A stretch of DNA of 64,000 nucleotides from contig BROG01000394.1 of assembly GCA_030159075.1 (NCBI GenBank), forward strand, positions 252,001-316,000, read 5' to 3'. The position numbers were made by a program, and so were the translations under genes. Positions 12,343-21,168 of the stretch are shown piece by piece. Below the pieces are notes generated by a model that did not search any database, was not told the origin of the DNA, and worked only from the letters and a program-made list of their open reading frames with translations. Source of the DNA: Atrina japonica. Lineage: Eukaryota; Mollusca; Bivalvia; Pterioida; Pinnidae. Positions within the stretch are counted from its first letter, which is position 1. Each line of letters starts with the position of its first letter.

Positions 12343-15300
12343 CTGAAAGGAAAAAAAAAGAACACATTAACTTCATTCTAGCAATTATATATACACCCTA
12401 TTAATAAAAAGAGAAATAGGAAATTTTAAAATCATTGATTACTTAAACCTTAAACTTAGAACAATACTAGTTTTAAAATTTAATAACCGTTCTCTCTAAC
12501 ATAAATACAAATCCTCAAATAGCCCTGGGAACCTTTTGCATGAAATGAGATGGACAAAAACAAATATATGAATGAAAACTGCATGACCTTACTCAACCTA
12601 CTGGGCACTATTTAAAAAAGCCCCTACACAACAATTATTTTGAGCAGATTTGCTAACTACATTTCATTTAAGACAAATTTGAAAGATGTTTAAATTTAGG
12701 TATCAAATTAAAAATTGCCTAGAGTTTTGTAATTGCTCACCATTCACTTAACTCATTCACCCCTAAAGACACATTTGGATTGGTCCAAGTCATCGATTAA
12801 CAGAAGAATCCATTGTTTTTCAGGGGTCGACGAGTTTAAAACCAATGGTAAAAGCACATCACACAAATAACTTAATTTTAACGATGTTAAAAAACTAAAT
12901 GAAACAATGAATCTTTAAACTGTGAAGATGATCTTTCTGTGTGGAACTGAGAAAATTTGTAAACAAAAGATAATGTCAAGTTTGTTTGAGCTAGCATCAG
13001 ACAACCATTGTGTACACAGGTTTTCGTCAAAACACAATTCTGTTGAGGGAAAATGTCAATCATCATAGCAAGCTCAATCAATTTTGTTTATGTTGAACAA
13101 TCAGGGCAATAACAAGAGTTATCTAACCTGAATTATTACTACGGTACTAGAATTAGAATAGCAGTTCAAGTCAGTAGGTGGCATTTAAACAGTTTTCTTT
13201 TTTTTTTGAATTTCTATGGGCATAGTTCTTAAGACTTTACATTATACACAGTCTATCTCATATCCAAAAGTTTGAATACTAAGTCTTCAATATCTTTAAA
13301 ATGAGCATTTCTAAAAACTTTGATTTTGAAAATGACAACAATTTTTGTGCCATACATTTAAACTGTAACATACGTCACCTCTCACTGATTCTGATTCAGT
13401 TCCAGAAAGTCTTCAAATTTCTTGATTATTATTTACGATCTTTATCATAATTAAGGATTTGAAAATGATGACAGTGTTTACAATGATGAACAAAGAACTC
13501 ACCATAATAGCATTGACAATATCGTTCCCGTTGTTTTTGAGAGCTTTGACAGCTTTCGACCGTGAAACATTGGCTTGTGACATAACAAGTTCAATATCTT
13601 TTGCTTCAACTCCACTCTCGTCAACCTGAAATGCAACAAAATGGCTTTAATAACATGAAATAATGATTTCAAATACTGTCATATATATTTTAGGTTGCAT
13701 AAGGAGGTTCTTAACAAAACTAACAAGGCATCGGAGACAATACTAATCCCCTCGCGGAAGAATCATGATGATGAACATGAATTATGAACTGAACAAGCTG
13801 ACACAAGTGGAATGTGATCCGTTTATTAAATTTTTTTTACAAAGGGGAATAACTGTGAAAACGGAAGCAAGAGTTACAGTTCTTGCACACAGCACTCCTC
13901 CTCTATGTCGTCTTGACGTGTGTTAAGTCTGATGAAATTATCATGCATGGTTTGAGAGTTATGCTCCGGACAAATATGGTAAGTAGTTACGGGCAGATCC
14001 CTCGTAGCAAGGGGCTAATTAAATGATGGACTTATACTCAGGTCATTCCAGGAACTTTCTTTTCATCAATCCAGTTTAAATTTAAGTCTCTGCTTCATCC
14101 ACATCCTTTCAACCCCGAAAGAAAAAGTGGCACAACTGAATTCTGTCAAAAATGAAAACAATACTGTCCCATTTTCCCAAAATGGGGTGTATAGGTAAAA
14201 CATACTCCATACATTACTGTATCTCAGATATTTCTGTGTCAAAATCTTGCTGTCAGATGGGCTCACCACTTGTAATGTTTGTAACAAGCCTTTTTCTGCC
14301 AAATTCTTTAAAATACAATTGACCACACAATTGGAAAAAATAGTTTGCAGACATGTATAGATCTAAATGTAATGGAATCTCTTTTTAAATGCATTTCTTC
14401 CCGCATTAATTTATTTTCATTACGACTACAAAAGGAAGAAATGTATTCTGTACACGAAATTAGGAATTTATTTCCATCAAATTGGGTAAAGACACTTGTG
14501 TTTTGCATTGGGAATGGAGTCGCGGGAAAAAAAGGCCTCTTGTAAACATGCACCATTTCATCTTGGCAGAACTATTATTCCGATGTTATGCTCTTTTCTA
14601 CTGTATCAGTTAATTATCGTCTGTGGCATTTAAAATGTTAATTTTCTTATTCAAAACAACAAACCTCTGCTTCTTCCTCTGATTCTTCTTGGATCGGATG
14701 TGGAACGGTGCTTGGGACATCTCCGCCGAGTCCGGCAGGATTTTCTGGAGCTTTGAATTTTTCTGCTGCTGCCATTTGTGCTTGTTGACTCATATCTTCA
14801 ATCTGAAATTTTGGATTTGTCATTTACATCAAAGTTTCACATTTTATTTTTACCATATCTTTAAAGTCCATTTCCGAGAAAAACAAGAAGTGGGAGCCAG
14901 TATAGATTAAACTCTTCCACTTGGATTTTATGTCATTTCTCAGGTAAGTATTAAAATTATTATACTCTACCAAACATAAAACTGCTTGCATCAGATTAAC
15001 AAATACTGGCTTGATACAGCATTTGAATCATCAAATATCGTTATGATGGGGAAAAAATAAAATCATCATCACAAGCAGCTAAAATATACACAAAATAACA
15101 AACATGATAACCAAACAACAAGCTCATGCTCAATGTCAATGGGATCCTGATATTTTGTTAAGATTTAAATATATTTTTGGATCTAAGTTATGACATATTA
15201 TCATGTCATTTATTCATGTTACCCGACCTTCGAATAACATTCACCTTTTAGTGACAAGCTTTTTTTAAAAATGTATTAAGGGCACCTTCCTATAAAGCCA

Positions 15301-21168: not shown

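What the first reader, a model, noticed from the sequence alone, without database searches (positions are those of the whole stretch)
14982..20183. Seven-copy C/D-box snoRNA-like array inside the introns of NACA
Seven 97-nt sequences on the NACA strand (14982-15078, 15812-15908, 16511-16607, 17823-17919, 18369-18465, 19376-19472, 20087-20183) share box C (GTGATGA), a C'-like TGATGA, box D (CTGA) and a terminal stem. The stem varies by compensatory changes (CTGTTTG/CAAACAG, CTGCTTG/CAAGCAG, CTGCCTG/CAGGCAG) and G-U pairs, direct evidence of selection on RNA structure. Two lie in intron 3 and five in intron 2, although animal introns usually carry one snoRNA. Intronic C/D snoRNAs in translation-related, TOP-type host genes are well known; a seven-fold array of one snoRNA in NACA is not something I recall being described.
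Basis: partly seen in the sequence, partly recalled or inferred. Interest (0 to 1): 0.88.

Follow-up and report, generated by a model that had tools for sequence, protein, structure and literature searches.

The report
Seven SNORD12 copies in NACA introns
The NACA gene of what is likely a bivalve mollusc holds, crowded into two of its introns, seven almost identical sequences that match the small RNA family SNORD12, predicted to direct one chemical mark on the large ribosomal RNA; the RNA family is known, and the crowding of seven copies into two introns of this host gene is the unusual part.

Summary
Seven 97-nt elements lie at the stated coordinates, all in sense with NACA, 88-95 of 97 positions identical in pairs, and nowhere else in the 64 kb. 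All seven keep boxes C, C', D and the D'-guide TTTTTTCCCC, complementary to GGGGAAAGAA in LSU helix 73 and spaced to point to the G that appears to be yeast G2395 / human G3878. The terminal stem continues beyond the 97-mer, with changes on both sides at four pairs. Five copies share one 4,038-nt intron, two a 1,499-nt intron; one sits 78 nt from its 3' splice site. A different C/D-like element (12988-13075) lies in the last intron. Several SNORD12 copies per host gene are known (human 3, chicken 4, in successive introns); five in one intron, and NACA as host, I did not find in limited literature searches. Expression, methylation, genome-wide copy number and conservation in other molluscs could not be tested.

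The parts
14982..15078 (-). SNORD12 copy s1, coding intron 3; 3' end 179 nt before the 3' splice site
   Evidence: Rfam RF00581 44.2 bits, above gathering; exon start
15812..15908 (-). SNORD12 copy s2, coding intron 3
   Evidence: Rfam RF00581 46.4 bits, above gathering; aligns with s4 over 157 columns at 88%
16511..16607 (-). SNORD12 copy s3, coding intron 2; 3' end 78 nt before the 3' splice site
   Evidence: Rfam RF00581 41.8 bits, just below gathering 43; distance
17823..17919 (-). SNORD12 copy s4, coding intron 2
   Evidence: Rfam RF00581 44.9 bits, above gathering
18369..18465 (-). SNORD12 copy s5, coding intron 2
   Evidence: Rfam RF00581 42.8 bits, just below gathering (the match ran 18368-18466)
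19376..19472 (-). SNORD12 copy s6, coding intron 2
   Evidence: Rfam RF00581 41.7 bits, just below gathering
20087..20183 (-). SNORD12 copy s7, coding intron 2
   Evidence: Rfam RF00581 44.1 bits, above gathering; longest uninterrupted terminal stem, 13 pairs with G-U counted, 20083-20187
16577..16586 (-). ASE1 (TTTTTTCCCC) of s3, the D'-guide; same place in all seven copies
   Evidence: identical in 7 of 7; pairs GGGGAAAGAA of eukaryotic LSU
16529..16539 (-). ASE2 candidate (GCCAGTATTTG) of s3, before box D; its last nine bases form the right arm of a 9-bp internal hairpin
   Evidence: identical in 6 of 7; A to G in s5 keeps the pair as U-G; target not established
16433..20470 (-). NACA coding intron 2 (4,038 nt), host of five copies
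   Evidence: exon ends read from the NACA frame
14803..16301 (-). NACA coding intron 3 (1,499 nt), host of two copies
   Evidence: exon ends read from the NACA frame
12328..21168 (-). NACA coding region: exons 21168-21040, 20564-20471, 16432-16302, 14802-14665, 13625-13503, 12342-12328
   Evidence: first five exons joined give one open frame, the last was found by pattern; NAC and UBA domains; closest named protein Magallana gigas 86%
12988..13075 (-). A different C/D-snoRNA-like element in the last NACA intron
   Evidence: ATGATGA, CAGA, TGACGA, CTGA in order; below gathering for SNORD100 (25.6 of 58), SNORD103 (22.8 of 45), SNORD12 (22.3 of 43) and SNORD37 (21.7 of 45); R1 24.5 bits, E 0.0012 over the window

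Best explanation
The seven 97-nt elements match the box C/D snoRNA family SNORD12 (reported orthologue of yeast snR190 and fission-yeast snR107), lie in sense orientation in two introns of NACA, and are predicted to be released from the spliced introns and to guide 2'-O-methylation of one G in helix 73 of the large-subunit rRNA. Inferred steps: NACA pre-mRNA is spliced; core proteins (fibrillarin, NOP56, NOP58, SNU13) bind C/D and C'/D'; the covarying terminal stem sets the ends; ASE1 pairs with GGGGAAAGAA so that the fifth nucleotide before D' (a C in 7 of 7 copies) faces the third G of GGGG, which I take to be the G of yeast G2395, fission-yeast G2483 and human G3878. A second stretch before box D may add a chaperone function in early 60S assembly, as reported for the yeast relatives; its target here is not established. 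The copies probably arose by local DNA duplication and are kept alike by selection, gene conversion or both. Copies in a gene of the translation machinery may buffer or tune SNORD12 supply along with NACA output.
For: Rfam SNORD12 for 7 of 7 copies, E 1.4e-6 to 2.8e-5, 4 of 7 above gathering. ASE1, D' (CATA), C' (TGATGAT) and D (CTGA) identical in 7 of 7; box C fits RTGATGA in 7 of 7. Rfam's eukaryotic LSU consensus reads GcGGGGAAAGAAGACCC at the ASE1 target, seen by way of a eukaryotic LSU fragment; there ASE1 is the best-scoring pairing, 10 nt with one G-U. The D' spacing points to the third G after the C of GCGGGG; if yeast C2392 is that C, the third G is G2395. SNORD12C guides Gm3878 in human cells (PMC7243338, passages); the orthology is stated in PMC11971394 (passages). 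Terminal stem: four pairs with changes on both sides, covariation score reached by 0 of 500 shuffles. All seven in sense with the host, none elsewhere in the window. s2/s4: 95 of 97 inside the element against 43 of 60 aligned flank columns.
Against: No expression or methylation data. 3 of 7 copies are just under the Rfam gathering score. D' (CATA) is degenerate, and in budding yeast the orthologue does not methylate G2395. Pairing scores are not exceptional against mononucleotide-shuffled snoRNA: 78 of 1000 (domain V piece), 104 and 376 of 1000 (two fungal D1/D2 pieces) reach them, and a longer but weaker 14-nt pairing lies elsewhere in the domain V piece; so the target rests on homology. The mollusc's own 28S was not available. 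Six of seven copies are not at the classical distance (a recalled rule) from a 3' splice site. A human survey found that larger snoRNA families do not in general give higher total abundance (PMC8178906), which speaks against a simple dose argument. Box and guide columns vary less than the rest (3 of 44 against 12 of 53), but only at P 0.047, with columns that I chose after seeing the alignment.
Confidence: 0.78

Rival explanations
1. Mainly an rRNA-folding chaperone rather than a methylation guide: like budding-yeast snR190, the RNA shields LSU sites during early 60S assembly and methylates nothing, and many copies supply the amount that a placeholder needs.
For: Yeast snR190 has a D'-guide to helix 73 and a second antisense element, and acts without methylating G2395 (PMC8536666, passages). 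D' is degenerate here. The stretch GCCAGTATTTG before box D is complementary over 11 nt (one G-U) to LSU domain I TAAATACTGGC as printed for a fungus; the same string stands in a Prevotella contig in what looks like 23S rRNA (not checked further).
Against: C' is a canonical TGATGA here, and relatives in fission yeast and human do methylate. The domain I match is reached by 104 of 1000 shuffles and has an equal-scoring, one base longer, rival site in the same rRNA piece. I could not confirm that the yeast box B target is this site.
Confidence: 0.2
2. Mostly non-functional leftovers of duplication or retroposition: one copy is active and the rest are decaying.
For: Seven copies exceed the four or fewer expressed members usual for human families (PMC8178906, passages); six lie outside the classical distance.
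Against: All seven keep the boxes and ASE1, and the eight core stem pairs are formed in 7 of 7 with compensatory changes at two of them; all are in sense with NACA; no poly-A tail follows any of the seven (by eye). Target-site duplications were not tested.
Confidence: 0.12
3. A transposable or satellite repeat that happens to contain a SNORD12-like core.
For: High identity with sharply bounded similarity. A genome-wide count could not be made: the genome search gave no answer in nine tries.
Against: No copy elsewhere in the window on either strand; 7 of 7 in sense; the similarity ends with the covarying stem.
Confidence: 0.04

Closest known systems
SNORD12 / SNORD12B / SNORD12C (RF00581) in the lncRNA ZFAS1, human; GGgCD57, four isoforms in introns 1-4 of one host, chicken (listed as homologue of HBII-99 and snR190; that HBII-99 is SNORD12 is recalled)
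   Same: Family by Rfam score, D'-guide, several paralogues in one host gene
   Different: Host here is protein-coding NACA; seven copies; five share one intron and two another, while the vertebrate copies lie in successive introns
snR190 (budding yeast) and snR107 (fission yeast)
   Same: Reported orthologues with a D'-guide to the same LSU site and a second antisense element
   Different: Described in the passages as one gene each, upstream of U14 (snR107 itself in an intron), not as arrays
Intronic snoRNA clusters (plants; a pair in one Plasmodium intron; animal sno-lncRNA loci)
   Same: More than one snoRNA per intron
   Different: The passages read name pairs or mixed clusters, not repeated copies of one rRNA guide
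SNORD115/116 and SNORD113/114 tandem arrays
   Same: Local repetition of one C/D snoRNA
   Different: Those are large, imprinted arrays of orphan snoRNAs; here seven irregularly spaced copies (gaps 449-1215 nt) of an rRNA guide

Membership tests
SNORD12/SNORD106 (Rfam RF00581) | Covariance-model score at or above the gathering score of 43 bits | tested here: met
   Met by 4 of 7 copies (44.1-46.4); the other 3 score 42.8, 41.8 and 41.7, E at most 2.8e-5
SNORD12/SNORD106 (Rfam RF00581) | D'-guide complementary to the helix 73 site, fifth nucleotide before D' facing the target G | tested here: met
   TTTTTTCCCC and C at the fifth position in 7 of 7; target in the eukaryotic LSU consensus. The mollusc's own 28S was not seen
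SNORD12/snR190/snR107 | Second antisense element (ASE2) before box D with an LSU target | tested here: inconclusive
   GCCAGTATTTG in 6 of 7, one pair-keeping change in s5; 11-nt complementarity to domain I, reached by 104 of 1000 shuffles
Box C/D snoRNA | C (RTGATGA) and D (CTGA) boxes closed by a terminal stem | tested here: met
   7 of 7; stem of 10-13 uninterrupted pairs with G-U counted, four pairs with changes on both sides
Box C/D snoRNA | Stable RNA bound by the core proteins fibrillarin, NOP56, NOP58, SNU13 | not testable with these tools
   No RNA data for this species
Intronic snoRNA released by splicing | Sense orientation in an intron, about 70-80 nt before the 3' splice site (distance recalled) | tested here: inconclusive
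   Sense and intronic in 7 of 7; distance 78 nt in 1 of 7, 179 in another, 1,009 to 3,654 in the other five (from exon ends)
sno-lncRNA (RNA capped by snoRNAs of one intron) | Two or more snoRNAs in the same intron | tested here: met
   Five in 4,038 nt and two in 1,499 nt
sno-lncRNA (RNA capped by snoRNAs of one intron) | A stable long RNA between the outer snoRNAs | not testable with these tools
   Would span 3,673 nt and 927 nt
Retroposed snoRNA (snoRT) | A-rich tail | tested here: not met
   No poly-A tail after 7 of 7 (by eye); s2/s4 share flanking DNA, which fits DNA duplication
Retroposed snoRNA (snoRT) | Target-site duplications | not tested
   No systematic test was run

The most novel reading that the evidence does not exclude
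Because exonucleases trimming a debranched intron would stop at the first and last snoRNP, the two NACA introns yield stable RNAs strung with five (3,673 nt) and two (927 nt) SNORD12 particles: multivalent nucleolar RNAs that hold several pre-60S sites or buffer the rRNA-folding machinery, coupling ribosome assembly to output of the nascent-chain chaperone NACA.
Probability: 0.15. Interest if true: 0.7.

Novelty: new variant of a known kind. Interest (0 to 1): 0.42.

Why it matters
SNORD12 and its yeast relatives mix two roles, methylation guide and folding chaperone, and why animals keep several copies in one host gene is open. A natural array of seven near-identical copies, five in one intron, offers a test of whether supply or a placeholder role drives the multiplication, and of how an animal cell frees several snoRNPs from one intron when the usual picture is one per intron. 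It also makes NACA, a gene of the translation machinery, a candidate snoRNA host for others to check.

Tried and rejected
Dispersed repeat: no further copy in 64 kb; genome-wide not testable. Cryptic exons that would give each copy its own acceptor: with a hand-made acceptor score, at 55-110 nt only s3 stands out (fraction of random positions at least as good 0.010; the other six 0.29-0.91), and at 40-200 nt s4 has a fair site 134 nt away (0.09); but the score is weak, since two of the five real NACA acceptors score only 1.3 and 3.0, no better than the sites near distant copies, so cryptic exons are not excluded. Longer outer stems for copies far from the splice site: s3 has the shortest uninterrupted stem (10) and s7 the longest (13), but against random intron positions the outward pairs of single copies reach only P 0.026 to 0.39, and seven related copies cannot carry the claim. 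Targets by complementarity alone: not significant. Mollusc 28S: patterns gave one eukaryotic LSU fragment in viral contigs, none, three stretches of one Prevotella contig; a search for printed strings listed 30 of 253 papers, of which I opened two, both with fungal D1/D2, and a longer string found none. Tree of copies: of six informative columns, 7 of 15 column pairs show all four combinations, so gene conversion, recombination or repeated change blurs any tree.

NACA as host in print: one search listed 4 papers; in the two I opened all 'NACA' hits (3 and 1) were the company name Nacalai; the other two were not opened. Titles and abstract starts (15 of 105 papers listed; 2 of 2; 6 of 6; 19 listed of 20; 20 of 471; 6 of 6; 20 of 115) did not describe SNORD12 in a mollusc, NACA as a snoRNA host, or such an array; most of these papers were not opened, and subscription journals are largely missing from the library.

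Papers: only passages found by term were read for PMC11971394, PMC2653536, PMC8536666, PMC9235157, PMC4995647, PMC2656528, PMC11028025, PMC8178906, PMC13228274, PMC3412847, PMC9410898, PMC9133132, PMC2780460 and PMC7243338; PMC3511168 was opened and none of the six terms asked was found. Recalled, from no call: the 70-80 nt distance, the fifth-nucleotide rule, HBII-99 as the older name of SNORD12.

Full report
What is there. They differ at 15 of 97 columns without gaps, 88-95 of 97 identical in pairs. A model of the seven finds them at 118-123 bits (by construction) and nothing else in the window above 24.5 bits. A motif scan for C box, D box and an unbroken stem returns these seven on the minus strand and one weak hit on the plus strand; it misses the element at 12988-13075, whose stem has a mismatch.

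The host. Five minus-strand exons (21168-21040, 20564-20471, 16432-16302, 14802-14665, 13625-13503) join into one open frame, and a pattern search finds the last exon with the NACA ending at 12342-12328. The protein has NAC (8.4e-26) and UBA_HYPK (1.1e-12) domains. The animal is therefore likely a bivalve. Coding intron 2 (20470-16433, 4,038 nt) holds five copies and coding intron 3 (16301-14803, 1,499 nt) two. Gaps between successive copies run from 449 to 1,215 nt; one of the six gaps contains the exon 16432-16302.

What it is. All seven match Rfam RF00581, SNORD12/SNORD106, over the full model: 46.4, 44.9, 44.2, 44.1 bits (above the gathering score of 43) and 42.8, 41.8, 41.7 (just below), E from 1.4e-6 to 2.8e-5. 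SNORD12/B/C is reported as the orthologue of budding-yeast snR190 and fission-yeast snR107, with two antisense elements, ASE1 before D' and ASE2 before D (PMC11971394, passages). In 7 of 7 copies ASE1 is TTTTTTCCCC, D' is CATA, C' is TGATGAT and D is CTGA, and the fifth nucleotide before D' is C. ASE1 pairs over 10 nt (one G-U) with GGGGAAAGAA, which stands in Rfam's eukaryotic LSU consensus. By the fifth-nucleotide rule (recalled) the target is the third G after the C of GCGGGG; if yeast C2392 is that C, the target is G2395 (numbers; the placing is my inference). That G is reported methylated in fission yeast and human cells and not in budding yeast. So the methylation here is predicted by homology, not shown. 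Complementarity alone would not show it: 78 of 1000 mononucleotide shuffles of the snoRNA score as well on the 151-nt domain V piece, where a longer (14 nt) but weaker pairing also exists.

ASE2. The stretch before D, GCCAGTATTTG, is the same in 6 of 7 copies; s5 has one A to G. It is complementary over 11 nt (one G-U) to TAAATACTGGC in domain I as printed for I. orientalis, and with one more wobble to TAAATATTGGC of S. unisporus (PMC4995647, passages). But shuffles reach these scores 104 and 376 times in 1000, and another site in the first piece scores equally. Whether this is the site of yeast box B is not known to me. Nine of these bases also form the right arm of a 9-bp hairpin kept in 7 of 7 copies, the s5 change giving U-G.

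Selection on structure. On the 97-mer alone, two stem pairs have changes on both sides and 22 of 500 shuffles reach the covariation score. With three outer pairs added, four pairs have changes on both sides (such as A-U to G-C and C-G to G-C); 0 of 500 shuffles reach the covariation score, and 7, 17, 7 and 21 of 500 reach the other four measures; sliding the partners by 1-3 columns drops paired cells from 96.4% to 28-48%. Against this, the outermost added pair is broken in 4 of 7 copies and the next in 1 of 7, and the copies are related, so the shuffle counts are not probabilities. Flanks have mostly lost similarity: s2 and s4 align over 157 columns at 88%, 95 of 97 inside the element and 43 of 60 outside; s1 and s3 over 115 columns at 92%, 92 of 97 inside and only 14 of 18 outside, a weak case. 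The s2/s4 flank points to duplication of DNA across the exon between the two introns. Seven of 15 pairs of informative columns do not fit one tree, as gene conversion or repeated change would give.

Processing. Only s3 lies at the classical distance (recalled), 78 nt, from a real acceptor; s1 is at 179 nt and the other five at 1,009 to 3,654 nt (from exon ends). No acceptor-like site better than background lies 55-110 nt after the six others, but the hand-made score also ranks two of five real acceptors low, so hidden exons are not excluded. Either the terminal stem lets distant copies assemble, or an endonuclease cuts between them, or snoRNA-capped long RNAs form, as known for two-snoRNA introns (PMC11028025, passages). 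None of this could be tested.

What is known. Human SNORD12, B and C lie in consecutive introns of ZFAS1 and three members are expressed from one host; chicken has four isoforms in introns 1-4 of one host; Neurospora has an intronic homologue. Human families generally express no more than four members, and larger families do not in general give more RNA, which weakens a simple dose argument. Animal introns mostly carry one snoRNA; clusters in one intron are reported for plants and a pair in Plasmodium. I found no report of NACA as host, or of five copies of one snoRNA in one animal intron, in the searches made; the library holds open-licence papers only, several lists were capped, and most listed papers were not opened.

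Verdict. By sequence these are multicopy members of SNORD12 in an unusual host and arrangement: new variant of a known kind, interest 0.42. Whether they are expressed, methylate, are unique in the genome or are shared by other molluscs could not be tested here; the genome search did not answer in nine tries.

Noticed in passing
window 12988-13075, minus strand: A different C/D-snoRNA-like element (ATGATGA, CAGA, TGACGA, CTGA) in the last NACA intron, 645 nt before its 3' splice site; only sub-threshold Rfam matches (SNORD100 25.6, SNORD103 22.8, SNORD12 22.3, SNORD37 21.7 bits).
   Followed up: partly
window 45284-45748 and 52565-53101, plus strand: Annexin repeats in two separate open frames whose protein sequences look alike by eye, so perhaps a tandem pair of annexin genes.
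   Followed up: no
window 61766-63517, minus strand: A 583-residue open frame with a RING finger near its start.
   Followed up: no
window 32385-32971, plus strand: A tandem repeat that stays open in more than one frame with the same repeated peptide, so more likely a simple DNA repeat than a gene.
   Followed up: no
window 39256-39338, minus strand: Weak second match of the seven-copy model outside NACA (18.7 bits, E 0.041), possibly chance.
   Followed up: no
L001 10900-11223, minus strand: The end of an IMG/VR 'viral' contig matches eukaryotic LSU rRNA (213.5 bits), so the contig may be chimeric or not viral at that end.
   Followed up: partly
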